43,676 bases of DNA, from the NCBI GenBank assembly GCA_002840555.1, contig PHBJ01000018.1, forward strand, positions 1-43,676, read 5' to 3'. This document shows positions 17,565 through 43,590 of the stretch, piece after piece. Both the position numbers and the translations under genes were made by a program. Below the pieces are notes generated by a model. That model had not been told where the DNA came from. It ran no database searches and saw only the letters and a list, made by a program, of their open reading frames with translations. This DNA comes from Deltaproteobacteria bacterium HGW-Deltaproteobacteria-13. Its GTDB lineage: Bacteria > Desulfobacterota > Syntrophia > Syntrophales > Smithellaceae. Within the stretch, counting starts at the first letter, position 1. The number at the start of each line of letters is the position of its first letter.

Positions 17565-17573
17565 GAGGAACAA

Positions 17574-18254: not shown

Positions 18255-18352
18255 TTCATTTGCAGGGAGTTGTAATAATTGGGTGACAGCAGGTGCTTCC
18301 CTCGAATTTAAAGAAAATTTTTTTCTGGCGCGGCAATGAGGGAAAGCAAGTT

Positions 18353-18949
18353 ATGAATCTGATTGTAGGCCTGGGGAATCCCGGCAGTCGCTATCAATTG
18401 ACCAGACACAACATCGGATTCATGGTTCTGGAAAAGATTGCCGCCCGATGGGAAGTGGATTTAAAACAAAAAAGTTTCGACGCTCTTTGGAATAGAGGTA
18501 AAATCGCCGGCACGGAAGTGTTGCTGGCCATGCCTCAAACGTTCATGAATTTAAGCGGTAACGCGGCAAGAAGATTACTTGCTTATTTCAAGGTGGATAT
18601 CAATAATTTAATAGTGATTCATGATGATCTTGATTTGCCTTTCGGTTCGTTTCGTCTGAAGACCGGAGGAGGGGATGCCGGTCATAAAGGGTTAAAATCT
18701 ATTATTACCTGCCTGGGGTCCGCGGATTTTATGCGAGTCAGGATGGGTATCGGTAAACCTGCCGACAGAACTCCGGTTGAAGATTATGTTTTGCAAAGGT
18801 TTAATCCTGATGAATCCACCCTGTTGCAGCAAGTGATTCAATCCGCATCAGAAGCTACCGCCGATATCGTTACATCAGGTATGCAACAAGCTATGGCTAA
18901 ATACCATACAAAAAATAAAAATATGAGTCATAAAAAGGAGGATGGATAA
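18353..18949 (+). CDS. pth: Peptidyl-tRNA hydrolase
   Basis: This enzyme cleaves peptidyl-tRNA released from stalled ribosomes, recycling tRNA. The start is placed at the ATG at 18353, so that the protein begins MNLIVGLGNPG as in all Pth families. The longer frame from 18293 adds 20 residues with no counterpart and lacks a good binding site. The 198-residue protein shows the LGNPGSRYQLTRHNIGF site (catalytic His), MPQTFMNLSG, and HDDLDLPFGSFRLKTGGGDAGHKG. Its Shine-Dalgarno GAGGGAA (18338-18344) can pair with TTCCCTC at 18297-18303. The stop overlaps the hppA ATG. Confidence 0.95.
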   Translation: MNLIVGLGNPGSRYQLTRHNIGFMVLEKIAARWEVDLKQKSFDALWNRGKIAGTEVLLAMPQTFMNLSGNAARRLLAYFKVDINNLIVIHDDLDLPFGSFRLKTGGGDAGHKGLKSIITCLGSADFMRVRMGIGKPADRTPVEDYVLQRFNPDESTLLQQVIQSASEATADIVTSGMQQAMAKYHTKNKNMSHKKEDG

Positions 18950-31189: not shown

Positions 31190-31208
31190 ATCAATTATTA
31201 AAATTGAT
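31190..31208. promoter_or_regulatory. Candidate GntR operator palindrome
   Basis: The 19-bp inverted repeat ATCAATT-ATTAA-AATTGAT sits between the -35 boxes of the two divergent promoters. Its half-site ATCAAT recurs in the gntR promoter spacer at 31167-31172. Its position and symmetry fit a dimeric winged-helix regulator. Binding itself is inference. Confidence 0.5.
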
Positions 31209-31219
31209 ATATAAAATTC

Positions 31220-31247
31220 TTGACATTATATAACAATATGTTAAACT
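31220..31247 (+). promoter_or_regulatory. Probable promoter of the BCR-like cluster
   Basis: TTGACA (31220-31225) is followed after 16 bases by TAAACT (31242-31247), with a TG one base upstream of the -10 box (extended -10). The first gene begins 75 bases downstream. The candidate operator ends 12 bases upstream of the -35 box. Confidence 0.55.
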
Positions 31248-31322: not shown

Positions 31323-32114
31323 ATGATTGTAGCAGGATGCGACGTCGGATCTCTCACCGCCAAGGCCTTTATCATGAATGAAAAAGGTAAAATAGCCGGT
31401 GAGATCATCAGGGTAAGATCGACAACCATAGATTCGGCCACGGAAGTAATGGAAAAAGCTCTGGCATCAGCTAAACTCCGATTTTCCGATCTGGACTACT
31501 GCTGCAGTACCGGTTACGGCCGTTATGAAATTCCCTTCGCCCAGATGAACATGAGTGAGATATCCTGTCATGGATTGGGCGCCTTCCGGGCGGATCAAAG
31601 CATCAGGACAATCATCGATATCGGAGGGCAGGACTGTAAGATCATACTTATCGATGCAGAGGGTAATGTTCTTGATTTCATCATGAACGACAAGTGTGCG
31701 GCAGGTACGGGAAGATCTCTGGAGATACTGGCCAAAACGATCGGCCTTGATCTGGAGGAGTTAGGAGACCTGGCCATCAAATCCAAGAAACCAATCAATA
31801 TTACAAACAAGTGCAGCATCTTCATGGAACTGGAGGTTCTGAATAACCTCTATACCAGAAAGAAACTGAAACATATCGCCTGCGGGATTGCCGATGCCGT
31901 TGCCAAAAGAGTGGCATACCTGGCCAAAGCTATAGATATAGAGGATAACATTTGCATAACGGGCGGGGTTTCTAAAAATCCGGGAGTGGTAAGGCAGTTG
32001 GCCTATCATATGAACTCTTCGTTTACATCTCTTCCTGTTGATCCCCAGATTATCGGCGCCTTTGGCGCCGCCTTCTATGCCATGCAGAAATTGACGATGG
32101 AGCCGGGGCCATGA
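31323..32114 (+). CDS. BcrAD/BadFG-type ATPase (activator of 2-hydroxyacyl-CoA dehydratase/benzoyl-CoA reductase), subunit 1
   Basis: This 263-residue ASKHA-fold ATPase couples ATP hydrolysis to low-potential electron transfer through a [4Fe-4S] cluster shared across a dimer. The phosphate-1 loop is GCDVGSLTAKA (residues 5-15) and the phosphate-2 loop is DIGGQDCKII (99-108). The two cluster cysteines are Cys125 (NDKCAAGTG) and Cys164 (NKCSIF), spaced as in HgdC. The adenosine motif GGVSKNPGV is near 214-222. The length equals HgdC and BcrD and is shorter than BcrA. An AAAGGA site precedes the ATG. Its stop overlaps the start of the second ATPase (ATGA), so the two are probably made as a heterodimer. 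Confidence 0.9.
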   Translation: MIVAGCDVGSLTAKAFIMNEKGKIAGEIIRVRSTTIDSATEVMEKALASAKLRFSDLDYCCSTGYGRYEIPFAQMNMSEISCHGLGAFRADQSIRTIIDIGGQDCKIILIDAEGNVLDFIMNDKCAAGTGRSLEILAKTIGLDLEELGDLAIKSKKPINITNKCSIFMELEVLNNLYTRKKLKHIACGIADAVAKRVAYLAKAIDIEDNICITGGVSKNPGVVRQLAYHMNSSFTSLPVDPQIIGAFGAAFYAMQKLTMEPGP

Positions 32115-32926
32115 TCACAGCGGGAGTCGATATAGGGACAAGATTTATCAAGGTCTGCGTAACCGATGGTGAGAGTCTGCGCGGGTCCGCCTGCGAGGAG
32201 ATGGGTCCCCATTTTGACGCCATTGTTCGGTCTCTTTTAAAGGAGGCCAGGGTACAGGCTCAGGTCGGAAGATGGGAAATAAAAAAAATCATTGCCACGG
32301 GCTTCGGCGGTCACTTGGTGAAGAAGGCCGCCTTTACCCTGGGAGAAGCCGCTTGTACCGCCAAGGCAACCTTCTTTTTTGACCGGGATGTCAGAACAGC
32401 TATTGATCTCGGGGGACTTTTCATCACCATTGCCACTATTGATGAAAACGGCTTTCTGGAAACAACTCATATCAACGAGAGATGCGCCGCCGGAAGCGGT
32501 AAGTTTCTGGAAATGGTAGCTGAGGCGGTAGGCGTGCCTTTTGATATGATTTCCTCCTGTGCCGCCAAGTCTTGTCAACCCTACTCGTTCTCCAGCAGCT
32601 GCGCCGTCCTTGCCGAAAGCGAAATCATCTCACAGATTAATACCGGAATGAAGCCGAGCGATGTCCTGGCCGGTGTTATCAGGGCAGTAGCCTCAAAGGC
32701 CGCTTCACTCATCGACGGCGCCGGAGCAAAGGATCGTATTGCTCTGATCGGCGGACTCTCCAAGATTCCCGCGATTAAGGATACATTGACTAAGCTCACC
32801 GGCAAACAGATAACGACATTGCCCATCGATGGACAACTGGTTGCCGCTTTTGGCGCCGCCCTGATTGCCCAAGGTAAGATCATTCAGAAGAAGCGGAGTA
32901 TATTCGCGAAAAGAGGAGCCGCCTGA
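32111..32926 (+). CDS. BcrAD/BadFG-type ATPase, subunit 2 (divergent phosphate-2 loop)
   Basis: This 271-residue paralogue of the preceding gene should also be an ASKHA-fold electron-activating ATPase. The phosphate-1 loop GVDIGTRFIKVCV and both cluster cysteines, Cys125 (NERCAAGSG) and Cys164 (SSSCAVL), are kept at identical positions. The adenosine motif GGLSKIPAI is present. The phosphate-2 loop, however, reads DLGGLFITI instead of DIGGQDxK, losing the Gln-Asp pair. ATP turnover by this subunit may therefore be altered, while the cluster interface is retained. Two different ATPase subunits are the arrangement of ATP-dependent benzoyl-CoA reductases (BcrA+BcrD), not of the homodimeric dehydratase activators. 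Start and stop overlap both neighbours. Confidence 0.85.
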   Translation: MITAGVDIGTRFIKVCVTDGESLRGSACEEMGPHFDAIVRSLLKEARVQAQVGRWEIKKIIATGFGGHLVKKAAFTLGEAACTAKATFFFDRDVRTAIDLGGLFITIATIDENGFLETTHINERCAAGSGKFLEMVAEAVGVPFDMISSCAAKSCQPYSFSSSCAVLAESEIISQINTGMKPSDVLAGVIRAVASKAASLIDGAGAKDRIALIGGLSKIPAIKDTLTKLTGKQITTLPIDGQLVAAFGAALIAQGKIIQKKRSIFAKRGAA

Positions 32927-33678
32927 TGGAATTGACTGATTGTGCCCCCTTGATTAAACAGATTTTGGAGATGGTTAGAGATCAACGCCGGGGATTTTCC
33001 CGCCACCTTCCCGATAATGGTGAAGAGACGCGGCGGATCGGTTTTCTCCCCAAGGGTGAGAAAGCCGGCCGGCCGGTAATTGTCACCGCCGATAATGCAG
33101 CCCTTGAATTAGGATCGCCGCAACATCCTACGGTCAGCACGCTTCTTTGGACAAAACAAAAAGAGCTGCTGAGCAGGACAATTTGGATAGCCGGCAGAGA
33201 TTTCCCTCAGATAAAAGAAAGCCCCGTCAGTTTTGCGCAGGTGGTCATGGTGGAATTGGAAAGCGATTTTGATCCCACGGGTCCGAACATACAGACTCTC
33301 TCAAATCTTACTAATCGGATTCCGGGATACATGACCAGAAGCATTCCCGGTAAGGTCTGGATCAGAATCCATCGGGATCTCCTGAGCAGGGAATTTTCCC
33401 TGCTGTCTCTCGGGCAGTGTCTTACACAAGCCTATCATGAGTCTATCCCCGGGCTGAGAAACATCGAAGTCGTCCTTATCGCCGGCAACGCCGATCTAGT
33501 GGGGCACCTCATCCCGATTCATAACCGCGCCCGTGTCATTTATGGCGAGAACAAAAAACTGGCTCTGGAAGCCGACGGAACCATCAGTTGCGAGGATCTT
33601 GACTGCGAGAATTGTGCGGAAAAACCAGCCTGCGATACACTGCGGGATGTTATTGTGAAAAGGAGAAAATTATCGTGA
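32926..33678 (+). CDS. Stand-alone CdhC N-terminal-like protein (CO dehydrogenase beta subunit family)
   Basis: In this 250-residue protein, residues 105-215 follow the pattern of the N-terminal part of the CODH/acetyl-CoA synthase beta subunit CdhC: SDFDPTGPNIQTLSN, then GKVWIRIHRDLLSREFSLLSLGQCL, then an IEVVLIAG strand and a RARVIYGEN helix. The catalytic A-cluster domain is missing. Instead, the C-terminus carries a short Cys222-x4-Cys-x2-Cys-x5-Cys236 motif (CEDLDCENCAEKPAC), likely a metal or Fe-S site. The ATG overlaps the upstream stop (TGATG). It sits between the paired activator ATPases and a CooC-like ATPase, so a role in building or delivering a metal centre is more likely than catalysis. 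The similarity is judged by eye. Confidence 0.6.
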   Translation: MELTDCAPLIKQILEMVRDQRRGFSRHLPDNGEETRRIGFLPKGEKAGRPVIVTADNAALELGSPQHPTVSTLLWTKQKELLSRTIWIAGRDFPQIKESPVSFAQVVMVELESDFDPTGPNIQTLSNLTNRIPGYMTRSIPGKVWIRIHRDLLSREFSLLSLGQCLTQAYHESIPGLRNIEVVLIAGNADLVGHLIPIHNRARVIYGENKKLALEADGTISCEDLDCENCAEKPACDTLRDVIVKRRKLS

Positions 33679-34469
33679 GCGAACCTATTATCATTGCTTT
33701 CCTGGGTAAGGGAGGCGTCGGAAAAACGGTGCTTTCCGCGCTGATGGGAAGTATCCTTTCCGCTCAGAGCAGAAAGGTTCTTTTTGTGGATGCCGATCCG
33801 GCCATGGGATTGACCAGCGCCCTGGAGGTTTCGGATATAAAAACAATCGGTACCGCGCGGGAGGAAATCATCCGTCAGGCCAAGATTTCCAATTCTTCAG
33901 AAGAGAAAGAGCGGCTGGCCGATATCGTCGACTATCTGCTCATGGAGGCGCTTTATGAAGGACCCGATTTCGGGATGATTGCCATGGGTCAGACCAATAC
34001 TCTGGGTTGTTACTGCCCCATTAACAATCTTCTGCGCAGCACGATCAAGGAAATAGCGTCACAATACGAAGTCGTGATTATCGACGCAGAAGCGGGCATC
34101 GAACAGGTCAACCGACAAGTCGTGGAATCGGTTCATTACCCCGTCATCGTTACGGATAATTCCAAACGGGGAGCCCAGACAGCCACAATGATTTCCCAGT
34201 TGCTGAAAAAGGTCCCTCAGATGGCGCCTGTAAAAGTAGGAGCAGTTTTCAACCGCGTCATCGAGGCGGATAAAGATCTGATGAATATTATTCGGAATGC
34301 GGGAATGGAGTATTACGGCAACGTCAAACCGGATCCCGCGATCAGCAAACTGGACAGACACGGCACTTCCATCGCGAAAATTGACATCACATCCCTTGCC
34401 ATAAGCGGGATGATATCGATACTGGAGAAAATGGGAGCCTTTGGTCAAAAGATTAAGACCGGAAAGTAA
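33675..34469 (+). CDS. CooC-type nickel/metal-insertion ATPase
   Basis: This 264-residue MinD/SIMIBI-class ATPase resembles CooC/AcsF, which loads nickel into CO dehydrogenase or acetyl-CoA synthase. The deviant Walker A GKGGVGKT is at 11-18. The VDADPAMGL switch I segment is near 38-45. The CxC metal-binding motif GCYCP has Cys112 and Cys114, the same positions as in Carboxydothermus CooC1. The DAEAGIEQ switch II is near 137-144. I chose the GTG at 33675: AGGAG lies nine bases upstream, it overlaps the previous stop (GTGA), and the protein then starts right before the first beta strand. No CODH or ACS catalytic gene is in the window, so its client is unknown. Confidence 0.85.
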   Translation: MSEPIIIAFLGKGGVGKTVLSALMGSILSAQSRKVLFVDADPAMGLTSALEVSDIKTIGTAREEIIRQAKISNSSEEKERLADIVDYLLMEALYEGPDFGMIAMGQTNTLGCYCPINNLLRSTIKEIASQYEVVIIDAEAGIEQVNRQVVESVHYPVIVTDNSKRGAQTATMISQLLKKVPQMAPVKVGAVFNRVIEADKDLMNIIRNAGMEYYGNVKPDPAISKLDRHGTSIAKIDITSLAISGMISILEKMGAFGQKIKTGK

Positions 34470-34482
34470 AGATATTAAACAG

Positions 34483-34503
34483 GACATGCCCACACGGCAT
34501 GTC
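34483..34503 (+). other. Intercistronic hairpin without a T-run
   Basis: A perfect 8-bp stem GACATGCC/GGCATGTC with a five-base loop lies between the CooC-like gene and the thiolase gene. With no downstream T-run it is unlikely to terminate. It could act as an mRNA stability or processing element dividing the maturation genes from the pathway genes. Confidence 0.5.
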
Positions 34504-34529
34504 TCAAATATATGTGTTTGGAGTAGGTT

Positions 34530-35939
34530 ATGCGAAATGTTTATGTAGTTGCGGCTCATACGATCAAGTTTGGCAAGTATCTGGAAAAAACGATTTCCGA
34601 TTTATCTGCGATGACGGTTCTTCCGTGTCTGAAAGAAGCGGGCTTGGACAAGAAAGATATTCAGGCCCTGTGGTTTTCTAATTCCGCATGGGGAGAATAT
34701 AAAAGGCAAGTCTGCATCCGCGGCCAGGTGGCTCTCCGTCCTTTGGGGATCGACACCATCCCGATCACCAACCTGGAAAACGCCTGCGCCGGCGGGTCCA
34801 CCGCCTTTCATCATGCCTGGATGGGCGTGGCCAGCGGGATGTACGATGTCACTATGGCTCTGGGTGCGGAAAAGATATACGACCAAAACCAGTCCCTCGT
34901 GTTTTCCGGATTTCTTACCGGGTTGGATGTGGGGAATTTCGGGAAAACTCTGGAAACATTGGGCGATGTCGCCTTAAGCAATGACGAAAAGAAGGCCATG
35001 GCGTCTCATATAGAGAAATACAGGGGGTTGGCGAAGAAAGGATCAGGCAGTAAGAAAAAAAAGTCCCTCCGGGATAAATTCATGGCGCAGCGGGACGCCT
35101 TGGTTATCGCTGTCAGGATCGGGGAGACCATGGGGTATGACATGCTGAAAAAACTGCGGAAGTTAGGCAGCGGCGACCATTCACCCTTCATGGATGTTTA
35201 CGGCTACGAGGCTCGCCAGCACATGAAAAGGTTCGGCAGCACTATCGAACAGCTGGCTTTGATTGCCTCCAAGAATCATTTTCACTCTTCCCTGAATCCC
35301 AATGCCCAGTATCAATTCTTAGTATCACCTGAAGAAGTGCTGGCGGACCGTCTGGTCACCTGGCCGCTGACCCGTTCCATGTGCGCCCCCATTGGCGATG
35401 GCGCCGCCTCGGCGATTCTCTGCGATGAAGCGACAGTAAGGCGTCTGGGCTTGACTGCTCAAGCCGTTAAGGTAAGGGCTTCAATCCTTGGCTCCGGCAT
35501 GGCCAGAAATCGCGACGGAATCGACATCGGCGAGCGCTTGAGCCGCTTGGCCTACGAGAAGGCAGGTGTGGGACCCGCCGAGATCGGTTTTGCCGAAGTG
35601 CATGACGCCACCGCTTACGGAGAACTTCATCAGTGCGAGTCCCTGGGGTTCTGCCGTTTGGGTGAAGGAGGAAGATATGCTGAAAGCGGGGCGACCAAAC
35701 TGGGAGGCAAGCAGCCCGTCAATCCCAGCGGCGGTCTGGAATCGCGCGGTCATCCCATCGGAGCATCCGGCCTTTCCCAAATTCACGAATTGGTGACTCA
35801 ATTAAGGGGGGCCGCCGGGACAAGGCAGGTCGCCGGGGCAAAGATCGCACTGGCGGAAAACGGCGGCGGCGCTCTGGGAGTGGAAGAGGCCGCCATGTGT
35901 ATCCATATTCTGGAAGCACCCTCATTGACGGTTTCGTAA
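34530..35939 (+). CDS. Thiolase-family protein (SCP-x/sterol-carrier type)
   Basis: This 469-residue thiolase-fold enzyme should cleave or form a carbon-carbon bond next to a CoA thioester. The nucleophile is Cys86 in NACAGGSTA, His358 lies in EVHDATAYGE and His408 in GHPIGASG. The usual second catalytic Cys of CxGGG is replaced by Asn in ENGGGALG, as in SCP2-type thiolases. A Lys-rich insertion (about 168-182, KKGSGSKKKKSLRDK) is unusual and may be surface-exposed. GGAG stands seven bases before the ATG. It begins the second half of the cluster and is followed by a CoA ligase, so it probably performs the terminal thiolytic step. The acyl substrate is unknown. Confidence 0.78.
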   Translation: MRNVYVVAAHTIKFGKYLEKTISDLSAMTVLPCLKEAGLDKKDIQALWFSNSAWGEYKRQVCIRGQVALRPLGIDTIPITNLENACAGGSTAFHHAWMGVASGMYDVTMALGAEKIYDQNQSLVFSGFLTGLDVGNFGKTLETLGDVALSNDEKKAMASHIEKYRGLAKKGSGSKKKKSLRDKFMAQRDALVIAVRIGETMGYDMLKKLRKLGSGDHSPFMDVYGYEARQHMKRFGSTIEQLALIASKNHFHSSLNPNAQYQFLVSPEEVLADRLVTWPLTRSMCAPIGDGAASAILCDEATVRRLGLTAQAVKVRASILGSGMARNRDGIDIGERLSRLAYEKAGVGPAEIGFAEVHDATAYGELHQCESLGFCRLGEGGRYAESGATKLGGKQPVNPSGGLESRGHPIGASGLSQIHELVTQLRGAAGTRQVAGAKIALAENGGGALGVEEAAMCIHILEAPSLTVS

Positions 35940-36086
35940 AGAGTCCGGATGCTGCGGATGCTTCATCCTTCGTCGTTACGACGCAGGTTAAGAGTATGAA
36001 GCACTTCTCATAATTTGCGCACTTCGCCTGTTAAGTTTTTTACAAAGCCGTTTAACTTAGAAGATCAGAGTGTAAGGAGAAATAGT

Positions 36087-37787
36087 TTGAACAGAAATTT
36101 AAGAAAATTGGATTTGGGGAAAAATATTTTAAAATCTGTCTGTTTGTTTTCCGCAAATGAAATCGTAAGAGGAACCTTCCTGAAAAATATACGCGGCGTT
36201 CCCAGGACGGAAATTATCGAAGAGATGTCCTGGGGGGAACTGCTGGAAGAGAAAGCGGCCCGCTATACGGATAAGGTTTTTCTCATGTTTGAGGATCAAA
36301 CCTTTACCTATCGCCAAATGAACGAAAATGCCAACCGGATAGCCCATTACTTTTTGTCAAAAGGCGCAGGGCAGGGCAAAGGGGTGGCGATCCTGATGGA
36401 CAATTCACCACGGTTTCTGGACATATTCATCGGCATCCAGAAGATCGGCATGTACGCTGTTCCCGTCAATACATCTTTGAAGGGAGATAGTCTTCTTTAT
36501 ATTCTCAACCATTGCGACGCTGAATATCTGGTCATCGATGAAACCCATCTGGAAACTTTGAGCAAGATTTCCGATCGTCTGGAAAAAATAAAAACAATTA
36601 TAGTCAATCCCTCCTTGTCCCTGCAGAAGAAATACCCTAAGAACGGCCATGTTCTTGATGAAGCATATAAGGAATCGTCTTTGAATCCGAAGATGGGCTA
36701 TCGCAAAGATGATATCTGCTTTATCACCTATACCTCAGGAACAACAGGTCTTCCCAAAGGCGTCGTTTACCGCTACCGTAAATCATCGGTGAAACTGCTT
36801 TCTTTAGTGGCCGTCATGCTCTTCAAGAAAAGCGACATACTTTATACAGGGATGCCTCTTTTCCACGGCAATGCCCTTTTCGTAACGGTGACAAGCGCTC
36901 TGCATGTAGGCGCCCAGGTTGTTCTGGTAAGAAAATTTTCAGCCAGCCGTTTCTGGGAGGATATAAGAAAGTATAATGCCACTGTTTTCAACACCATCGG
37001 CGCCATGATTCCTATCCTGATGAAGCAGCCGGAAAAGAATACCGACCGCGAGCATAATGTCCGTTTCATCATCTCGGCGGCCTGTCCCGCCGATCTCTGG
37101 GAGAAGTTCGAGAAGCGTTTCGGGGTGACCATCTATGAAACCTACGGAGCCGTTGACGGGGGCGGCAAGACGATTCTGAATCTGGGCACTGCTCCGGTTG
37201 GTTCCATCGGCAAACCGCCCATGAAGGTCAAGTACCGGCTTGTTGATCCCAATATGAATGATGTTCCCGAAGGTATGCCGGGCGAACTGGTTTTCCCCGT
37301 TTCCAAAAAGAAAAGCACCTCCTCCGTTGAATACTACAAAAACGAAAAAGCCTCGGCGGAAAAAATGAACGGAGGCTATATCTTCACCGGTGATTTGATC
37401 AGACGCGACGCCAAGGGATATCTCTACTTTATCGGTAGAAATACCGAGTCGATGCGCATTAAAGGTGAAAACGTTTCGGCGTTCGAGGTGGAACAGGCGA
37501 TCCAGAAACATCCGGATGTTCTGGAGGCCGCCGTCTACGCCGTTCCTTCGGAATTGGCGGAGGACGATATCATGGCTTCCATAACTCTGGTAGAGGGCCG
37601 AACACTGAAAGAAACCGATTTGATCGAATACCTGAAAGAGAATCTCCCCAAATTTGCCGTTCCCAGGTATGTGAAGATTGTTACTGATTTGCCCAAGACC
37701 GAAACCCACCGTGTTAAGAAAAAAGAGCTGGAAGTTTTGAAGGTGGTATCCGGAACCTGGGATGAGAGTAAACTGGTCTATTTATAG
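36087..37787 (+). CDS. AMP-forming acyl-CoA ligase (FadD/CaiC/FATP-like)
   Basis: This 566-residue ANL-superfamily ligase activates a carboxylic acid through an acyl-adenylate to its CoA ester. It shows the P-loop YTSGTTGLPKGVV, the KFSASRFWEDIRKYNATVFN segment typical of CaiC and FATP-like enzymes, YETYGAVDGG, and YIFTGDLIRRDAKGYLYFIGR with the hinge. The catalytic Lys motif comes near the end (PKTETHRVKKKEL). The TTG start at 36087 was chosen because AAGGAG lies seven bases upstream. A longer frame from 36015 has no binding site. It probably supplies the CoA-activated substrate for the cluster. The 147-base gap before it contains two short dyads but no clear promoter. Confidence 0.88.
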   Translation: MNRNLRKLDLGKNILKSVCLFSANEIVRGTFLKNIRGVPRTEIIEEMSWGELLEEKAARYTDKVFLMFEDQTFTYRQMNENANRIAHYFLSKGAGQGKGVAILMDNSPRFLDIFIGIQKIGMYAVPVNTSLKGDSLLYILNHCDAEYLVIDETHLETLSKISDRLEKIKTIIVNPSLSLQKKYPKNGHVLDEAYKESSLNPKMGYRKDDICFITYTSGTTGLPKGVVYRYRKSSVKLLSLVAVMLFKKSDILYTGMPLFHGNALFVTVTSALHVGAQVVLVRKFSASRFWEDIRKYNATVFNTIGAMIPILMKQPEKNTDREHNVRFIISAACPADLWEKFEKRFGVTIYETYGAVDGGGKTILNLGTAPVGSIGKPPMKVKYRLVDPNMNDVPEGMPGELVFPVSKKKSTSSVEYYKNEKASAEKMNGGYIFTGDLIRRDAKGYLYFIGRNTESMRIKGENVSAFEVEQAIQKHPDVLEAAVYAVPSELAEDDIMASITLVEGRTLKETDLIEYLKENLPKFAVPRYVKIVTDLPKTETHRVKKKELEVLKVVSGTWDESKLVYL

Positions 37788-37824
37788 ACAGCTCGGAAAT
37801 ATCAAAATTTGGAGGTTTAGCGTT

Positions 37825-38241
37825 ATGAAAAAAGTCAGTAACGATCTGTGGCGGGAGATGTTCTTTCTGGGTTCACTCTGGAACATCGGAATCGGTCTTA
37901 TCGGTCTTTGCTTTTATGATTTGGCCATTACCATGCTCTTCGGGGCCCATGCGGTAACGGACAATCTCCTGGCCTTGATCTTTTTCAGGTTCTTCATGAT
38001 TGCCGTGATCCTCTTCGGTGTCGGCTACTATGTTGTCTCACGCAATCTTTCAGCCAACCGGGCCGTTATCTGGCTGGGGCTTACAGCCAAATTGATCATT
38101 TTCTTTACCTTCGTCTATTACTATGCCCTGGGGCAAGCCACTTGGTTCTCTGTCTTCGGCTGCTCAGGAGACTTCGTCTTCTCCATCTTATTCATCCTTT
38201 TCCTCTATCAGACGAAAGGCGGAGTTTACCAAACGTTCTAA
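37825..38241 (+). CDS. Small four-helix membrane protein
   Basis: This 138-residue protein has four predicted membrane helices (about 14-36, 45-68, 80-102 and 108-130) with short loops. The aromatic-rich character (FYDLAITMLFG, FFTFVYYYALG) is seen in small uncharacterised inner-membrane proteins. I do not recognise a catalytic motif. A GGAGG nine bases before the ATG at 37825 fixes the start; a longer frame from 37762 overlaps the ligase and lacks a binding site. Its place inside the cluster suggests a role in transport or membrane anchoring of the pathway, which is inference only. Confidence 0.65.
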   Translation: MKKVSNDLWREMFFLGSLWNIGIGLIGLCFYDLAITMLFGAHAVTDNLLALIFFRFFMIAVILFGVGYYVVSRNLSANRAVIWLGLTAKLIIFFTFVYYYALGQATWFSVFGCSGDFVFSILFILFLYQTKGGVYQTF

Positions 38242-38268
38242 ACAATAACTAAGATGAAGAGGTATGCT

Positions 38269-39018
38269 ATGGCAAAAAAAACGACAAATAATCTTTCACC
38301 TCTCTACACCTATCAGGAGGGCATGGAATGGAACCCCGTGGAAAAAGTGATCATGGAGCGTCGCAGTATCCGGAACTTTAAGAAAGAGCCGGTTGGCGAC
38401 AACCTGATCAGAAGGATTCTTGAGGCCGGAAGATTCGCTCCTACTGCGGGGAATGCCCAACCCTGGAAGTTCATCGTCATCAAGGATCAGGCACTGATCG
38501 CCGAAATGGAGAAAGCGACGGTTACGCTGAGTAAATTTCTCATGTGGTTCGTAGATTATAACCGCAACGCTTTCCGGCGTATCTTTCTTGCTCCCTATAC
38601 AAAATTTTTGACACGTTTGATGCCCAACAAACTCCATCCCATCCCTTTTAATCTTCTCCAGCAGATAGCGGCGGAAAAGGCGGCCGCATACCACAAGGCT
38701 CCCGTCATGATCTTGCTTTTGATCGATAAGCGGGGCATAGGCGATCCGGCTCTGGATGCCGGTATCTGCGGTCAAAACATGGTTTTGGCCGCTCACAGTC
38801 TGGGATTGGGAAGCTGCTGGATCGGAATGATCACGGTACTGATGATGAATCCCTTCTGGCGGAGAAAATTAGGTGTCATGTCTCCCTATGAACTCACCGA
38901 TTGCATTGTTTTAGGGTGGCCCAAGGGCGACTACGACGGTGAGGTGGAAAGAGAAGTGCAGTTGGTCGAATGGATCGATGCCGACGGAGTAAAGAGAATC
39001 GAAAGGCTGGGGGTGTAA
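38269..39018 (+). CDS. Nitroreductase-family flavoprotein
   Basis: The 249-residue FMN-binding oxidoreductase shows RRSIRNFKKEPV near 31-42, FAPTAGNAQPWKF near 56-68, and the LAAHSLGLGSCWIGMI segment that closes the FMN site. An insertion of about 40 residues around 85-125 (MWFVDYNRNAFRRIFLAPYT) is larger than in classical nitroreductases. The family includes nitro, ene, quinone and flavin reductases. Followed directly by a ferredoxin gene, it is more likely a redox partner or ene-reductase of the pathway than a nitro-compound enzyme. The ATG at 38269 is preferred because AAGAGG lies six bases upstream. An ATG at 38254 has none. Confidence 0.82.
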   Translation: MAKKTTNNLSPLYTYQEGMEWNPVEKVIMERRSIRNFKKEPVGDNLIRRILEAGRFAPTAGNAQPWKFIVIKDQALIAEMEKATVTLSKFLMWFVDYNRNAFRRIFLAPYTKFLTRLMPNKLHPIPFNLLQQIAAEKAAAYHKAPVMILLLIDKRGIGDPALDAGICGQNMVLAAHSLGLGSCWIGMITVLMMNPFWRRKLGVMSPYELTDCIVLGWPKGDYDGEVEREVQLVEWIDADGVKRIERLGV

Positions 39019-39019
39019 C

Positions 39020-39370
39020 ATGTTGAATCTATCATTAGGCAAGAAAGGAAAGATTCCCGATTATTTTAAAGAGAGTCAAATGACCTACGGCATTGTTACC
39101 TTTGATTCCAAGGTATGCACTGGCTGCGGCATCTGCGTCTCCATCTGTCCGGCCCGAGGGTTGAGGCTTACCGACAGGAAGGACGATTCCGGCAAGAAGA
39201 TACCCTTATTAATTGAAACCGCACCGGGGATATCGCTGTGCATGGCCTGCGGGGACTGCTCCGCCGCCTGTCAGGAAGGGGCTATCAGAATAAAACGGGG
39301 ATTCAATGCAGGGTTCTTTTTCCGAAAACTGTCTCAGAAATCGGACCTAACCCTGCCGAAGAAATATTAA
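39020..39370 (+). CDS. Ferredoxin with two [4Fe-4S] clusters
   Basis: This 116-residue protein carries two classical cluster motifs: Cys33-x2-Cys36-x2-Cys39-x3-Cys43 (CTGCGICVSICP) and Cys74-x2-Cys77-x2-Cys80-x3-Cys84 (CMACGDCSAACQ). They are separated by a 30-residue insertion. The N-terminal 20 and C-terminal 30 residues are basic extensions. It is the natural electron donor for the ATP-driven activator pair. A 2[4Fe-4S] ferredoxin gene is also present in known benzoyl-CoA reductase clusters. It starts just after the nitroreductase stop. Confidence 0.9.
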   Translation: MLNLSLGKKGKIPDYFKESQMTYGIVTFDSKVCTGCGICVSICPARGLRLTDRKDDSGKKIPLLIETAPGISLCMACGDCSAACQEGAIRIKRGFNAGFFFRKLSQKSDLTLPKKY

Positions 39371-39392
39371 TGATGAAAAAAGGAGAAAGTCA

Positions 39393-40784
39393 TTGAAGAC
39401 TAACCCAAAGCCATTAGAATATTTGAAGTGGAGCGCCAATTTCCTGAAGTTGGGATATTACATCACGGCCCTTCCACGTTTTAGTTACTGGGGAATGAAG
39501 CTCGTCCGGCCTCTCTATGTCAAAGGAGAAAACTTCCTCAATCGCAAACTGCGCTGGTCACTCCTTACATTGGGCGCGGGTATCCTGCCTCCGGAAGAGA
39601 TAAAGGCCTTTCGTTACGCTGTAAAGGTCTTCTCCGATAATATGAATAACGCCATGAATGCCGATAAAATTGGCAAGCCAGTCGTCTGGGTGGAATGGAT
39701 TCTCTCCAACGAAATTGTGGGAGCCTTTGACGCCTTACCCTTCAACCCGGAAACGCTCAACGTATTTGGCAACATGTCCGGGCAGGATATTCCCCCGCAG
39801 CTTATAGAAGAAGCGGAAAGCAGAGGTTTTGCGCCCGAGTACTGTTCCGCCATTAAGCTCACGGCGGGCGCCTATATGCTGGGACAAACCCCGCAACCCA
39901 CGGCGATCATAGCCGGATCACATCCCTGTGACACCAACGTTTCCGGTTATCAGGGTATTTCACGTCTCACGGGCGCTCCGGTATTCTACTTTGACGCCCC
40001 TTACTGGCGAAATGATGATTCTTTCAATTATTATGAAAAGAACATGTGGGATCTGGTCGCGTTCCTGGAAAAAAGTCTCCACCAGAAAATTAACTGGGAC
40101 AAGCTCCGCGAGATCGTGGACAATGAAAACAAGTTCAATTTCTATCTGCACGAAATCTGCGAGATGATGCGGGCCACTCCTTGTCCCTCAACGATGATCT
40201 CGCCTCTGTTTGCCTGGGTGGTAAGAGAATTGGCCATCGGTGATCCCAATGGTACGGAAATGACCAGAATACTACATGGGGTTGTCAAGAATCGTTATGA
40301 AAAGGGCATTGGCGTCGTCAAAAAGGAAAATATCCGTGTCATATGGTGGAATCCGCCCATCGCCTTTTTCACCTATGTCTTCAAGTGGATGGAGGATGAG
40401 TTTGGGGCCGTTGTTGTGAAAGATTTCATCGGCGACGTTCAGGTGCCGCAGGTGGATACCTCCTCAGAAAAAACCATGATCCATGATCTGGCCAGGAACC
40501 ATCTCTTCCTGGCTATGGCCAGGCAGTGTCACGGGCCGGTGGAATTTATTACACAGGAGCTGGAGAAGGCCATCGACGAGTACTCGCCGGATTGTCTGAT
40601 CTTCGCGGGACATGCGGGCTGCAAACACGGCTGGGGCGTTATCGGCATCATAAAGGATCTATTGAAAAAGCGGGGACTGCCGTCGCTGTTTATGAACATG
40701 GATATCATGGACCAGAGGCACGCCACGGAGGATGACATCAAACGCTGGATAACGGAATTTTTTAGGAGCAACGGATTCGCATGA
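39393..40784 (+). CDS. 2-Hydroxyacyl-CoA dehydratase/benzoyl-CoA reductase family subunit (BcrB/HgdA-like)
   Basis: The 463-residue catalytic subunit of the HgdAB/BcrBC superfamily is expected to hold a [4Fe-4S] or double-cubane cluster. Candidate cluster cysteines are Cys151, Cys179 (GSHPCDTNVSGYQ) and Cys410 (GHAGCKHGWG). The C-terminal Rossmann-like part (SLFMNMDIMDQRH) fits the family. BcrB is about 435 residues. The N-terminal 60 residues are basic and aromatic and resemble a membrane-associating extension. The start is TTG at 39393, supported by AGGAG seven bases upstream. It overlaps the next gene by four bases (ATGA), as expected for obligate partners. The substrate class, dehydration versus ring reduction, cannot be told from sequence alone. 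Confidence 0.82.
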   Translation: MKTNPKPLEYLKWSANFLKLGYYITALPRFSYWGMKLVRPLYVKGENFLNRKLRWSLLTLGAGILPPEEIKAFRYAVKVFSDNMNNAMNADKIGKPVVWVEWILSNEIVGAFDALPFNPETLNVFGNMSGQDIPPQLIEEAESRGFAPEYCSAIKLTAGAYMLGQTPQPTAIIAGSHPCDTNVSGYQGISRLTGAPVFYFDAPYWRNDDSFNYYEKNMWDLVAFLEKSLHQKINWDKLREIVDNENKFNFYLHEICEMMRATPCPSTMISPLFAWVVRELAIGDPNGTEMTRILHGVVKNRYEKGIGVVKKENIRVIWWNPPIAFFTYVFKWMEDEFGAVVVKDFIGDVQVPQVDTSSEKTMIHDLARNHLFLAMARQCHGPVEFITQELEKAIDEYSPDCLIFAGHAGCKHGWGVIGIIKDLLKKRGLPSLFMNMDIMDQRHATEDDIKRWITEFFRSNGFA

Positions 40785-41968
40785 AAACTATACTAGACGA
40801 AACAAAAGAACTGGCATCTTCGACCTGCAACCGATATCTGGATGAGGCTAAAAAACAGGGCCGGGGCATTATCGGATATTTTTGTTCATATATGCCCGAA
40901 GAGATTATCCATGCCGCCGGATTTGTTCCTTACCGCATGCGGGCTGTGGAAAGCAAAGGGACAACCCGTGCGGACGCCTATTATTCTTCGATCAACTGTA
41001 CTTTTGTCAAACGCTGCTTCGACAAAGCTCTAAACGGCGACTTTGCTTTTCTGGATGGTGTGATCTTCGTCAATGGCTGTGATCATGCGCGTCGCATGTA
41101 TGATAACTGGCGTTATTCCAAGATTAATCCATCCTTCCTTTACATGTTTTTCGCGCCCCATGTGATACGGGAGGCCGCCTACGAATATTTCGTCATGGAG
41201 TGCGAGAAGCTTAAGAAGGCCATTGAAGAAAATTTTAATATTTCCATTACAGACAAGGCGCTCAAGGAGTCGATTCGCCTTTATAACGAGAAAAGGCGGC
41301 TTCTGGCGGAGATTTATTCCCTGAGGAAGAAGAAAGATGTTCCCATTAAAGCCAGCGAGCTTTTAGGTGTTATGCTGGCGATCACGGCGGTGCCTGTTGA
41401 AAAGGCCATAGAAATACTGTCGGACGTAAAGAAATTCCTTGATGGGCGCGTTGTTTCCGAGCCTGGGGACCTGCGGCTCTTTATTTCCGGAGGCTGTATC
41501 GAGGAAATGGATCATCTGGAACTCATTGAGAACTGCGGATCCGTGATCGTGGCCGACAATATTTGCATGGGAACCCGTCATTTTCTCGATGATGTCAAGG
41601 AGGGAGAATATCCTCTGAAGGCCATTGCCGACAGGTATTTAAGTCATCTCTCCTGTCCCCGGATAATGAATGACTTTGACCGGAGATTCGATTATTTGCT
41701 TAGCGTCAAGAATGAATATGGCATCGACGGCGCCATCATTGAAAAACTAAAGTTCTGTGATCTCTGGGGCGGGGAAATATACAACTACCGTGTAGAAGCG
41801 AAAAAGAAAAGTGTTCCCTTGCTGGCAATGGAGAGAGAACTCTACGGCGGCGGCGCCGGCCAGATTAAAACCAGAGTACAGGCTTTTTTGGAAAAGCTGA
41901 GAAACAAACAGGTTACGGATGAAGGTTTGGTTCAGGCGGCCGGATCGGATTATAAACCCAAAATATAA
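40781..41968 (+). CDS. 2-Hydroxyacyl-CoA dehydratase/benzoyl-CoA reductase family subunit (BcrC/HgdB-like)
   Basis: This 395-residue partner of the preceding subunit shows the family pattern PEEIIHAAGFVPYRMR (39-54), INCTFVKRCF (Cys73), VNGCDHARRMYDNW (Cys100) and KFCDLWGGEIYNYR (Cys326). It ends with LLAMERELYGGGAGQIKTRVQAFLE, typical of the substrate-binding C-terminus. BcrC is about 386 residues. Cys73, Cys100 and Cys326 are the likely Fe-S ligands. Together with the upstream subunit, the two activator ATPases and the ferredoxin, it completes the four-subunit-plus-ferredoxin set of class I benzoyl-CoA reductases, although the order is split by seven genes. Confidence 0.87.
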   Translation: MKTILDETKELASSTCNRYLDEAKKQGRGIIGYFCSYMPEEIIHAAGFVPYRMRAVESKGTTRADAYYSSINCTFVKRCFDKALNGDFAFLDGVIFVNGCDHARRMYDNWRYSKINPSFLYMFFAPHVIREAAYEYFVMECEKLKKAIEENFNISITDKALKESIRLYNEKRRLLAEIYSLRKKKDVPIKASELLGVMLAITAVPVEKAIEILSDVKKFLDGRVVSEPGDLRLFISGGCIEEMDHLELIENCGSVIVADNICMGTRHFLDDVKEGEYPLKAIADRYLSHLSCPRIMNDFDRRFDYLLSVKNEYGIDGAIIEKLKFCDLWGGEIYNYRVEAKKKSVPLLAMERELYGGGAGQIKTRVQAFLEKLRNKQVTDEGLVQAAGSDYKPKI

Positions 41969-42016
41969 CCCAATATTAAATATAGAAAAAGCGATAAAAC
42001 CGGGAGGATGGATAAT

Positions 42017-43381
42017 ATGAATAAAGCGGCAAACGATTACGAATACATCATCATCGGCACAGGGCCGGGAGGCGCTCCGGCGGCCAGGGAATTGGCGAAG
42101 GCCGGCAAAAAGGTTCTCATGGTTGAAAAAGGAGATTATCACAAGAAGTTTTTGGGACTTCCCTTTGGCATCAGATTGCTGGAACGTTATATGCTCTTTG
42201 CCAGATCCAGGGAAGGCGTGATCATCGAAAGAGGCATCACTGTCGGCGGTTCTTCGATGGTTTATCAATCGAACGTAATGGACCCGCCCGAAAAGCTGAT
42301 CAACAATATGGGAATTGATTTCAGACCTGAGGCCAAGGAACTGAAAAAAGAGATCGGCGTCGAAGTTCTTCCGGAAAAGTTTTACCGGAATAATAAGGGG
42401 CTCTACCGGATGCTGGAGGCGGCCGCAAAGATGGGAGTTCCTTTTCGGGAACAGGAGAAGTTTGTCCATGCCAATAAGTGCAAGCTGGGTTGTGACTGGT
42501 GTATGTTAGGCTGTCCGGAGAATGCCCGCTGGACGACAAGAGAGCATGTGGAAGAGGCAAAATCACACGGCGCCACGCTTATTTACAATTCTCCTGTCAA
42601 TAAAATTATTTTCAATGCCGGAAAATCAAAAGCAACAGGCATTCAGCTGAAAAACGGCACGGTTATCAATGGCGATAACATCATCCTTTCCGCCGGCGGT
42701 ATCGGCTCTCCCGCCATTTTGTTAAGATCGGGCGTGAAGCGTTTAGGTACACAGGATGTCGGAACAAGGTTTTTTATGGATCCCATGAACATCATGCTGG
42801 GTTACAGCAAAGATCCCGATGGCGGCTTGTGGGGTATTCAGACCTTTTCCCATGCAATTGAATCCATGGCCCAGAGTGAAGGGTTTATGATTGGCAACGC
42901 TTCCGCCTTTGGAACCTGGACGGTTTTGTCCTTCTTCCGCATGCAGACAGCCAAAGAAAATCTGCTAAAATTCCCCATCATGAAGAGGGGTATGGGATTA
43001 TTTCTGAAGCTTTCCGATGAAGCCCATGGACAAATCTTTCCCAACGAAAAAACGAGTAAGCCCTTTACCGCCGTTGACGAGAAAAAACTGAAAAAGGGAA
43101 CGGATATTATGCGGGAGATCATCATTAAAGCAGGCGGTGATCCTGCAACAATTTCCGTTCTGAAATGGGCGGGAGGTCATCCCGGAGGCACACTGGCCAT
43201 GGGGCAGGCGATCAACAAAGATTTCTCCACTGAGATAGCGAACCTTTATATCTGCGACGGCAGCAGCATGCCCGTATCACCTGGTGCGCCGCCGTCGCTC
43301 TCTATCTGTTCCATGTCGTTGCTTTTGGGTAAGATGCTGTTGAACAAGGTAAAGGCCCAGGACCGGTTTGTTCATAAATAA
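42017..43381 (+). CDS. GMC-family FAD oxidoreductase with a four-cysteine motif
   Basis: This 454-residue flavoprotein should oxidise an alcohol or reduce an enone. The FAD-binding GTGPGGAPAAREL (14-26) and GGSSMVYQ (78-84) are in the N-terminal half. The C-terminal GMC signature GGHPGGTLAMG with its active-site His, and the DGSSMPVSPGAPPSLSI segment, end the protein. Between them, Cys155-x3-Cys159-x2-Cys162-x3-Cys166-Pro (CKLGCDWCMLGCP) suggests a bound Fe-S cluster, found in only part of the family. The ATG at 42017 is preferred because GGGAGG lies nine bases upstream; the ATG at 42008 abuts it directly. It is the last gene of the cluster and probably an oxidation step. Confidence 0.82.
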   Translation: MNKAANDYEYIIIGTGPGGAPAARELAKAGKKVLMVEKGDYHKKFLGLPFGIRLLERYMLFARSREGVIIERGITVGGSSMVYQSNVMDPPEKLINNMGIDFRPEAKELKKEIGVEVLPEKFYRNNKGLYRMLEAAAKMGVPFREQEKFVHANKCKLGCDWCMLGCPENARWTTREHVEEAKSHGATLIYNSPVNKIIFNAGKSKATGIQLKNGTVINGDNIILSAGGIGSPAILLRSGVKRLGTQDVGTRFFMDPMNIMLGYSKDPDGGLWGIQTFSHAIESMAQSEGFMIGNASAFGTWTVLSFFRMQTAKENLLKFPIMKRGMGLFLKLSDEAHGQIFPNEKTSKPFTAVDEKKLKKGTDIMREIIIKAGGDPATISVLKWAGGHPGGTLAMGQAINKDFSTEIANLYICDGSSMPVSPGAPPSLSICSMSLLLGKMLLNKVKAQDRFVHK

Positions 43382-43553: not shown

Positions 43554-43590
43554 AAATAAAAAAGGGCTTAACGAAATTCGTTAAGCCCTT
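43554..43590 (-). terminator. Rho-independent terminator of tRNA-fMet
   Basis: A perfect inverted repeat of 14 bp per arm (43562-43575 and 43577-43590) lies nine bases past the tRNA 3' end. On the minus strand it is followed by a run of six T (43563-43558). Its symmetry could also stop transcripts arriving from the GMC gene. Confidence 0.85.

What the first reader, a model, noticed from the sequence alone, without database searches (positions are those of the whole stretch)
31323..43381. A twelve-gene ATP-driven reductase/dehydratase cluster of unassigned substrate, with its own GntR switch
The sequence shows two BcrAD-type ATPases, a CdhC-like protein, a CooC-like ATPase, thiolase, acyl-CoA ligase, membrane protein, nitroreductase, ferredoxin, two BcrB/BcrC-like subunits and a GMC oxidoreductase, all on one strand. 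Known class I benzoyl-CoA reductases need four subunits plus a ferredoxin, and all five types are here. The sizes (263, 271, 463 and 395 residues), the interrupted order and the extra metal-handling genes match no cluster that I know. Syntrophs such as Syntrophus are known for ATP-independent class II reductases, so an ATP-dependent type would be notable. The inferred order is CoA activation, two-electron reduction or dehydration, oxidation and thiolysis of an alicyclic, sterol-like or branched acid.
Basis: partly seen in the sequence, partly recalled or inferred. Interest (0 to 1): 0.85.

Follow-up and report, generated by a model that had tools for sequence, protein, structure and literature searches.

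The report
ATP-driven acyl-CoA reductase operon, substrate unknown
A Smithella-type syntrophic bacterium carries a conserved gene cluster that seems to attack a fatty or cyclic acid with an ATP-powered iron-sulfur radical enzyme, which belongs to the benzoyl-CoA reductase family but falls outside the branches with a known job that could be compared.

Summary
Orthologous clusters occur in 6 of 16 other genomes of the genus (one only as a contig-edge piece). Nine of the twelve genes plus GntR recur together in two genomes of another Desulfobacterota family, and nine in a Spirochaetota MAG. The 463/395-aa pair forms well-supported clades that leave out BzdN/BzdO, MbdN, HadB/HadC and DCCP. The 395-aa subunit has all six cysteines shared by the double-cubane proteins BzdN and DCCP. 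The 463-aa subunit keeps BzdO's three cluster cysteines, Trp46 and Glu65, but not Tyr97 or His131. Two unlike ATPases are present, as in class I reductases; one has GGLF in place of GGQD. No Oah reaches its cut-off in 17 of 17 genus genomes, so benzoyl-CoA is unlikely. A FATP-type ligase and an SCP2-type thiolase point to a long-chain, branched or cyclic acyl-CoA. The ferredoxin gene travels with the nitroreductase, so it is not clearly the reductase's donor. The CdhC-like/CooC-like pair is an optional companion. Substrate and reaction remain inferred.

The parts
30361..31131 (-). GntR-family regulator, divergent
   Evidence: PF00392 44.6 bits; homologue (57-92%) beside the orthologous clusters of G004, G010, G015 and G007, and (55%) after gmc on the G043 contig L066; divergent from the thiolase in related loci
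31190..31208 (.). 19-bp palindrome ATCAATT-n5-AATTGAT between the divergent genes; candidate operator
   Evidence: lies in a block conserved in the five aligned regions (window included), but the arms pair perfectly only in the window; function not tested
31220..31247 (+). promoter-like site TTGACA-16-TAAACT ahead of act1
   Evidence: 10 of 12 matches; the scan as a whole found 19 sites against 15.8 +/- 4.2 in shuffles; CTTGACATT identical in the five aligned regions
31323..32114 (+). act1: ATP-dependent activator subunit (BcrAD/CoA_E_activ) with DIGGQD
   Evidence: TIGR00241 220.7 bits, cut-off 125.4; C125 and C164 conserved in 55 of 55 rows (a few overlapping loci counted twice)
32111..32926 (+). 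act2: second activator subunit, GGLF in place of GGQD
   Evidence: TIGR00241 149.2 bits; GGL[FS] in 16 of 19 rows, C125/C164 in 19 of 19 (two loci counted twice)
32926..33678 (+). CdhC-like protein: acetyl-CoA synthase/CdhC domain with C-terminal DCxxCx5C motif; candidate maturation factor
   Evidence: PF03598 26.4 bits; AF2 model matches CODH/ACS chains, best E 8e-11; C227/C230/C236 invariant in 12 rows
33675..34469 (+). CooC-like MinD/ParA ATPase with GCxC motif
   Evidence: PF01656 56.2 bits; GCxC in 25 of 25 homologues of the fetched loci, GKGGVGKT in 20 of 25
34530..35939 (+). SCP2/BbsB-type thiolase with about 100-aa insertion
   Evidence: PF22691, PF00108; nearest solved structures BbsB and SCP2-thiolase; matches that run through the insertion in 8 of 395 phylum genomes
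36015..37787 (+). acyl-CoA ligase, FATP/very-long-chain type
   Evidence: NF004808 433 bits, below its cut-off of 722; nearest solved structure human FATP2
37825..38241 (+). small membrane protein, no family (ORF as listed from 37762)
   Evidence: no Pfam match; found in the orthologous clusters and beside gmc in G213
38254..39018 (+). nitroreductase-family flavoprotein
   Evidence: PF00881 117 bits
39020..39370 (+). [4Fe-4S] ferredoxin
   Evidence: PF12838 51 bits and related models; 1 bp after the nitroreductase gene
39393..40784 (+). B subunit (463 aa): predicted catalytic [4Fe-4S] subunit
   Evidence: PF06050 186.5 bits; W99, E120, C151, C179, C410 match BzdO W46, E65, C95, C128, C380; AF2 pLDDT 85.7, best PDB match BzdNO
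40781..41968 (+). C subunit (395 aa): predicted double-cubane subunit
   Evidence: PF06050 296 bits; six cysteines C35, C73, C100, C262, C292, C326 as in BzdN and DCCP
42008..43381 (+). GMC-family FAD oxidoreductase with Cys-rich stretch
   Evidence: PF00732 69 bits; beside B/C in three Desulfobacterota families (f1, f56, f51) and one Spirochaetota MAG
43562..43590 (.). 13-bp-stem hairpin, terminator-like, end of the unit
   Evidence: T-rich tail is better on the - strand; the scan found 13 such sites against 15.3 +/- 5.1 in shuffles

Best explanation
The cluster is most likely a regulated catabolic operon around a new clade of ATP-driven BCR/HAD-family enzyme. A FATP-type ligase makes the CoA ester of a long-chain, branched or cyclic (not benzoic) acid. 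The act1/act2 heterodimer, sharing one [4Fe-4S] cluster, spends ATP to push low-potential electrons into the double cubane of the C subunit. From there they pass to the water-bearing [4Fe-4S] cluster of the B subunit, which carries out a difficult two-electron reduction of the acyl-CoA. The GMC flavoprotein (joined by an acyl-CoA dehydrogenase pair in related operons) oxidises another position, and the SCP2-type thiolase cleaves the 3-oxoacyl-CoA. GntR holds the unit off until the acid or its CoA ester is present. Where present, the CdhC-like and CooC-like proteins help build or load a metal cluster. Shown by sequence: gene set, conservation, cluster ligands, clade membership. Inferred: one transcript, electron path, reduction rather than dehydration, substrate class, order of steps, roles of GntR, GMC, nitroreductase and the maturation pair.
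For: Six-Cys set in C, as in BzdN and DCCP, against four in HadC and three in MbdN. Two distinct ATPases, both with the cluster cysteines. Cysteines, Trp and Glu of BzdO kept in B (BzdO residues from PMC11971306). AF2 model of B matches BzdNO, HadB and MbdO chains. Clade support 100/99 for C (17 rows) and 100/100 for B (20 rows, two identical), leaving out the references. Thiolase, ligase, GMC, nitroreductase, ferredoxin, GntR, act1, act2, B and C recur together in G437 and G094; nine genes in Spirochaetota L076. In the 395-genome phylum sample the through-insertion thiolase (8 genomes) and the B clade (8) share 7; GMC (7) and B share 6. Ligase nearest FATP2, thiolase nearest BbsB and SCP2-thiolase. 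Oah cut-off reached in 0 of 17 genus genomes.
Against: His131, an acid/base catalyst of BzdO, and Tyr97 are replaced (N182, A153), so BzdO's chemistry cannot simply be carried over. act2 has a changed ATP-site motif. MbdN is from a reductase and lacks three of the six cysteines, so the six-Cys signature is not a strict reductase marker. The ferredoxin follows the nitroreductase. A paralogous thiolase-ligase-dehydrogenase-nitroreductase-ferredoxin cluster in the same genome has no reductase within the 20 kb read (L141). One related B/C pair sits beside olefin-synthesis-like genes (G013). ATP-driven two-electron reduction is costly for a syntroph.
Confidence: 0.45

Rival explanations
1. The B/C pair is a radical 2-hydroxyacyl-CoA dehydratase for hydroxy fatty acids. 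An even-numbered hydroxyl (for example of the 10-hydroxy acid made by an oleate hydratase) ends up at C2 after beta-oxidation, and the enzyme removes it so that beta-oxidation can go on.
For: B lacks BzdO's His131, as HadB does. In G008 a related act1-act2-B-C set follows thiolase, ligase, two acyl-CoA dehydrogenases, nitroreductase, ferredoxin, SDR, an oleate-hydratase-family (MCRA) gene and TRAP components on one strand. FATP-type ligase.
Against: Six-Cys C subunit, whereas HadC has four, and two unlike ATPases. The same genome has a separate pair with one ATPase and a three-Cys C subunit at C21, whose B scores best with HadB. MCRA is in 5 of 17 genus genomes, on a B/C contig only in G008.
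Confidence: 0.25
2. It is a true aryl-CoA reductase for a larger aromatic or partly reduced polycyclic acid, comparable to tetrahydro-2-naphthoyl-CoA reductase.
For: BzdN-type cysteines and BzdO-type Trp, Glu and cluster ligands. Tyr97 to Ala would leave room for a larger head group (inference). Strict anaerobes N47/NaphS2 use such an enzyme (PMC12016498, passages).
Against: None of the twelve genes is of the hydratase, MaoC, CoA-transferase or AtuA-lyase kinds listed for the thn operon (not sought elsewhere in the genome). No Oah over cut-off in 17 of 17 genus genomes. The ligase scores 433 bits with NF004808 but 210 with the benzoate-CoA ligase family, and is nearest FATP2.
Confidence: 0.17
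3. The operon makes, rather than degrades, a lipid: the thiolase condenses acyl-CoAs and the ATP-driven enzyme modifies the product, as PlsA-type proteins do in plasmalogen synthesis (recalled).
For: In G013 a related B/C pair follows two KAS III-like genes, an oleBC-like fusion, an oleD-like gene and a START-domain gene on one strand (OleC 641 bits, cut-off 850; OleD 425, cut-off 580). The own genome has a fused protein with two BcrAD domains and DUF2229.
Against: OleD-like genes occur in 11 of 17 genus genomes, none over the cut-off, and on a B/C contig only in G013. G005 has the same two-OleA type of cluster without B/C in the 17 kb read. Dehydrogenases and SCP2-type thiolase of related operons look catabolic.
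Confidence: 0.1

Closest known systems
BzdNOPQ, class I (BZD-type) benzoyl-CoA reductase of Aromatoleum sp. CIB
   Same: two HGD-D subunits, one with six double-cubane cysteines and one with a 3-Cys [4Fe-4S] site, Trp and Glu; two ATPases
   Different: far below TIGR03190/03191 cut-offs (152.6 against 453.8; 51.2 against 448.6); Tyr97 and His131 replaced; other gene neighbourhood; Oah not found over cut-off
Double-cubane-cluster protein DCCP (Carboxydothermus)
   Same: C subunit scores highest with this NCBIfam family (205.4 bits) and has its six cysteines
   Different: below the 350-bit cut-off; DCCP is a homodimer, here B has only three cluster cysteines; the own genome has a separate gene that groups with DCCP at 100/100 (L067)
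HadBC and other 2-hydroxyacyl-CoA dehydratases
   Same: fold, catalytic-cluster ligands, Trp and Glu of the B subunit, no His131
   Different: HadC has four of the six cysteines; HadB keeps the Tyr97 equivalent; one kind of activator (recalled); scores 42.9 and 152.2 against cut-offs of 750 and 700
Tetrahydro-2-naphthoyl-CoA reductase and the thn operon (N47, NaphS2)
   Same: ATP-dependent class I-type reductase with ferredoxin and thiolase genes in a strict anaerobe (PMC12016498, passages)
   Different: no hydratase, MaoC, CoA-transferase or AtuA-lyase gene in this cluster; ligase, GMC and nitroreductase are not in the thn table as shown
CdhC/ACS beta subunit and CooC
   Same: domain fold; P-loop ATPase with CxC
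   Different: the CdhC-like protein ends after a three-Cys motif, without the Ni-binding C-terminal part (recalled); found beside BCR/HAD clusters in 12 of 12 genus hits (with 10, 16, 80)

Membership tests
class I benzoyl-CoA reductase (BCR/BZD) | two ATPase subunits able to share a bridging [4Fe-4S] cluster | tested here: met
   act1 and act2; C125/C164 in 55 of 55 and 19 of 19 rows; act2 lacks GGQD
class I benzoyl-CoA reductase (BCR/BZD) | BzdN-type six double-cubane cysteines | tested here: met
   C35, C73, C100, C262, C292, C326; 56 of 59 C-type rows have all six (one search had used 263 by mistake)
class I benzoyl-CoA reductase (BCR/BZD) | three cluster Cys plus Glu65 and Trp46 equivalents in the catalytic subunit | tested here: met
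   C410 equated with Cys380
class I benzoyl-CoA reductase (BCR/BZD) | Tyr97 and His131 equivalents | tested here: not met
   A153 and N182
class I benzoyl-CoA reductase (BCR/BZD) | score over the Bcr or Bzd curated cut-offs; same clade | tested here: not met
   trees (BcrBC not in the trees, MbdO not in the B tree)
class I benzoyl-CoA reductase (BCR/BZD) | benzoyl-CoA lower pathway in the genome (Oah) | tested here: not met
   0 of 17 genus genomes over the TIGR03200 cut-off; best 97.9 bits against 464
class I benzoyl-CoA reductase (BCR/BZD) | ferredoxin as electron donor | tested here: inconclusive
   the ferredoxin gene follows the nitroreductase also where no reductase is seen nearby
class I benzoyl-CoA reductase (BCR/BZD) | ATP-dependent dearomatising activity | not testable with these tools
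   needs protein
2-hydroxyacyl-CoA dehydratase (HAD) | single kind of activator (recalled) | tested here: not met
   two unlike ATPases
2-hydroxyacyl-CoA dehydratase (HAD) | four-Cys beta subunit | tested here: not met
   six cysteines
2-hydroxyacyl-CoA dehydratase (HAD) | BCR/HAD fold with the 3-Cys catalytic cluster | tested here: met
double-cubane-cluster protein | six cysteines in the one subunit that forms the homodimer; score over 350 bits | tested here: not met
   C 205.4 bits; B 65.1 bits with only three cluster cysteines
CODH/ACS beta subunit (CdhC) | score over cut-off, Ni-binding C-terminal part | tested here: not met
   32.3 against 355.95 bits; protein ends at residue 250
CooC-type ATPase | P-loop and CxC motif (motif recalled) | tested here: met
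   GCxC in 25 of 25 homologues and in the window protein

The most novel reading that the evidence does not exclude
A new branch of ATP-driven radical enzymes that works on non-aromatic, long-chain or branched acyl-CoA, with an asymmetric ATPase pair in which one subunit has lost its ATP-site motif, and whose double-cubane cluster is built with the help of a domain taken over from acetyl-CoA synthase and a CooC-like ATPase.
Probability: 0.3. Interest if true: 0.88.

Novelty: new variant of a known kind. Interest (0 to 1): 0.62.

Why it matters
The BzdNO paper (PMC11971306, sections read) names only two double-cubane proteins, DCCP and BzdNO; how the [8Fe-9S] cluster is built is, to my knowledge, open. 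This cluster gives a defined clade with a fixed set of pathway genes, so substrate, reaction and cluster content can be tested directly. It also offers a candidate maturation pair: in the genus all 12 CdhC-like hits lie within a few kb of a BCR/HAD cluster. Genes of this kind can be annotated as bcr and read as benzoate degradation (a Syntrophaceae MAG in PMC10936416 had two bcr subunits by Prokka, none by BlastKOALA, and no other pathway genes; whether they belong to this clade was not checked). For the present cluster that reading is unlikely.

Tried and rejected
Benzoyl-CoA as substrate: judged unlikely. Oleate hydratase as a regular partner: 5 of 17 genus genomes, on a B/C contig once. Ole genes as a regular partner: 11 of 17 genus genomes, on a B/C contig once. 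Virus-borne element: no relative confirmed among 72 pattern matches in viral contigs. thn-type naphthalene pathway: gene set differs.

Literature: CooC with benzoyl-CoA reductase (four papers; only PMC10936416 opened, where the one CooC hit is the word 'cooccurrence'); 2-hydroxyglutaryl-CoA dehydratase with nitroreductase, thiolase and GMC (none at three of four terms); with Smithella (one paper, PMC6776118, passages); a five-term search (none); benzoyl-CoA reductase with Smithella (13 papers, listing, two of them opened). None of what I saw describes this cluster; most papers were seen as listings only, and only the open-licence PMC library was searched. Searches were also listings. PMC11971306: passages, outline, sections 8, 9 and 12. 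PMC12016498, PMC13365417, PMC6776118: passages. PMC10936416: passages and section 23.

Limits: thresholds for the co-occurrence counts were chosen after seeing the hits, and several genomes are close kin., 58 counted only C-type proteins over 300 aa with over 250 aligned residues (59 rows, window included), so split or fragmentary copies (for example G004, G013, L194) were dropped; L049 repeats L050. The three rows without six cysteines are L051 (three), L058:11471 (five, in the window's own clade) and L197 (five). The C tree dropped L049 (62 rows), the B tree L068, L188 and L248 (74 rows, two identical). Loci L074, L075, L078, L079 and L087, on the same contigs as G-loci, were left out of those sets. 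In one search a few overlapping loci are counted twice. BcrBC, HgdAB and FldBC sequences were not to hand; BcrBC is tested only by NCBIfam scores, HgdAB and FldBC not at all. MbdO is not in the B tree. Both trees carry long reference branches and the tool warns that their joins may be false.


Full report
What is there. The window is contig C26 of a 3.51-Mb genome. Twelve + strand ORFs run from 31323 to 43381; with the starts used the junctions lie between -4 and +75 bp. A GntR gene diverges at 30361-31131. The 191-bp gap between GntR and act1 has a 19-bp palindrome at 31190-31208 in a block conserved in the five regions aligned, window included; its arms pair perfectly only in the window. Sigma-70-like sites lie on both strands there, one of them a 12-of-12 match facing GntR, but the scan as a whole finds no more sites than shuffles. 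A 13-bp-stem hairpin (43562-43590) and a tRNA-Met gene on the other strand close the unit. That the genes share one transcript is inferred.

The organism. 

Conservation in the genus. Orthologues of the 463-aa protein at 77-85% occur in G002, G004, G007, G010 and G015, and a contig-edge fragment at 94% in G011, of 16 other genomes of the genus. A further one (83%) is in G043, classed in another family of the order; the matching record has a coverage of 1.97 in its title, so misbinning is possible. By tblastn act1, act2, thiolase, ligase, membrane protein, nitroreductase, ferredoxin, B, C and gmc are present in these loci as far as the contigs reach; in G004 the nitroreductase, ferredoxin, C and gmc genes are gapped or cut. 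The CdhC-like and CooC-like genes lie between act2 and thiolase in 3 of the 7 loci where that junction is visible (window, G004, G043) and not in G002, G007, G010 and G015. Those four genomes carry a copy elsewhere, in G007 one just beyond GntR.

Wider conservation. In G437 and G094 (another Desulfobacterota family, f56) the order is thiolase, ligase, two acyl-CoA dehydrogenase subunits, act1, act2, B, C, gmc, with GntR, nitroreductase and ferredoxin on the far side (identities 35-67%). In Spirochaetota MAG L076 ligase and thiolase diverge from act1, act2, CdhC-like, CooC-like, B, C, gmc. In G125 gmc-B-C are adjacent. In G213 the parts lie on three short contigs. In G008 a related act1-act2-B-C set ends a long run with thiolase, ligase, dehydrogenases, nitroreductase, ferredoxin, SDR, MCRA and TRAP components. 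In G013 B-C follow ole-like genes. In the 395-genome phylum sample a thiolase match running through the insertion is in 8 genomes and the B clade at E <= 1e-130 in 8, sharing 7; gmc at E <= 1e-100 is in 7, sharing 6 with B. Hypergeometric values are 2e-13 and 4e-11, but thresholds were set afterwards and relatives are counted, so they overstate the case; at family level the overlap rests on three families for the thiolase and four for gmc.

The enzyme. B and C are HGD-D proteins below every equivalog cut-off that they match. The C tree puts the window with 16 others in a 100/99 clade that leaves out BzdN, HadC, MbdN and DCCP. The B tree has a matching 20-row clade (two rows identical) at 100/100 that leaves out BzdO and HadB. 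Reference branches are long, so the order among clades is not claimed. Using the BzdNO structure paper (PMC11971306, sections 8, 9 and 12), C has the six cysteines shared by BzdN and DCCP; 56 of 59 C-type rows have all six, HadC has four and MbdN three. One member of the window's own clade (L058) has five. The residue list for the BzdN ligands was not in the text read; the six positions are those shared by BzdN and DCCP in the alignment. B keeps Trp46, Glu65, Cys95, Cys128 and Cys380 equivalents but has Ala for Tyr97 and Asn for His131. Within its clade the W, E and three Cys are kept, with L062 (C and V for W and E) and L076 (Y for W) as exceptions and one row (L188, cut) without the last column. 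The AF2 model (pLDDT 85.7) matches BzdNO, HadB, MbdO and DCCP chains, E 6e-17 to 1e-12.

The ATPases. act1 has DIGGQD, as 48 of 55 rows of its family do, and C125 and C164 are kept in 55 of 55. act2's family has GGLF or GGLS in 16 of 19 rows and keeps the same cysteines in 19 of 19. The bridging cluster is thus kept while one nucleotide site may be weakened. Best matches to act2 at 34% also occur beside other B types (L093, L096), so the act2 type is not strictly confined to this clade. The second system of the same genome (C20:203.7-214.9 kb) has three ATPases, each nearer act1.

The CdhC-like/CooC-like pair. The AF2 model of the CdhC-like protein (pLDDT 84.3) matches CODH/ACS chains. Three cysteines near the C terminus are invariant in 12 rows. 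In the genus all 12 hits (10 of 17 genomes) lie within a few kb of a BCR/HAD cluster, judged from coordinates. G013 has a B/C pair and no such hit (87% complete). The other loci in which the pair was seen were all chosen by their HGD-D gene, so they do not test the link. A maturation role is an inference from CooC (recalled).

Substrate class. The ligase is nearest human FATP2 among solved structures, the thiolase nearest BbsB and SCP2-thiolase, and related operons carry a two-gene acyl-CoA dehydrogenase. This favours a long-chain, branched or cyclic acyl-CoA. The Oah marker stays under its cut-off in 17 of 17 genus genomes. The own genome has two further thiolase-ligase-dehydrogenase clusters without a reductase in the 20 kb read around each (C20:24 kb, C3:117 kb; one search reports a stop inside the matched range of the C3 thiolase). 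The reductase thus seems to add a step for a special substrate. A pathway of CoA activation, oxidation by GMC or dehydrogenases, ATP-driven reduction, and thiolysis fits; the order of the middle steps is open.

Reduction or dehydration. For reduction: six-Cys C and two ATPases. For dehydration: no His131, and cheaper for a syntroph. I give reduction the larger share, not a decision.

Verdict. It is a conserved branch of a known enzyme family, for which I found no description, in a conserved operon-like cluster: a new variant of a known kind, with substrate and reaction still to be found.

Noticed in passing
G000:C20:203697-214940 (L049, L050); L090, L091, L063, L065: A second, different BCR/HAD system: C, B, two ATPases, CdhC-like, CooC-like, C', B' and a further ATPase, in the genus with a 436-aa ferredoxin-domain protein; two acyl-CoA dehydrogenases and a 415-aa protein without a family precede it in the own genome. 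A similar order of C, B, ATPases, CdhC-like, CooC-like, C', B', ATPase is in a Spirochaetota and a Bacillota MAG. Two catalytic pairs in one cluster are unexplained.
   Followed up: partly
L060 (G013:C5:1-18000): B and C follow two KAS III-like genes, an oleBC-like fusion, an oleD-like gene and a START-domain gene on one strand; a radical-SAM gene nearby has a sub-cut-off match to a ladderane-associated lipid family (98.5 bits against 360).
   Followed up: partly
L099-L109: A clade of B'/C' homologues in gut and rumen Clostridia (Mogibacterium, Ruminococcaceae and others); Gln at the catalytic Glu position in 9 of 9 B rows, and an activator hit within 6 kb of C in 1 of 11 loci.
   Followed up: no
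G000:C21:24089-28677 (L051): A pair with a single ATPase whose B subunit has BzdO-type Tyr97 and His131 equivalents while its C subunit has only three of the six cysteines.
   Followed up: no
G000:C20:106133-107167 (L067): A lone gene that groups with DCCP (100/100); the BcrAD matches on that contig lie about 100 kb away.
   Followed up: no
G000:C25, L255:2577-6857: 1426-aa protein with two BcrAD stretches and DUF2229, the layout of PlsA-type proteins (recalled).
   Followed up: partly
L080, L081, L086: Chloroflexota B homologues (4 rows) have His where the third cluster cysteine should be, and lack the Trp and Glu.
   Followed up: no
L202 (G094:C34:140000-152000): act1, act2 and a second C homologue (52-56%) without a B gene seen beside them, a few kb from the main G094 cluster.
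   Followed up: no
window 1715-10447 (-): 2910-aa protein with glucoamylase-like and GH94 domains, like cyclic beta-glucan synthases (recalled).
   Followed up: no
window 11678-21387 (+): A DisA/DacZ-type cyclase, a Clp-type ATPase and a membrane H+-pyrophosphatase gene on one strand.
   Followed up: no
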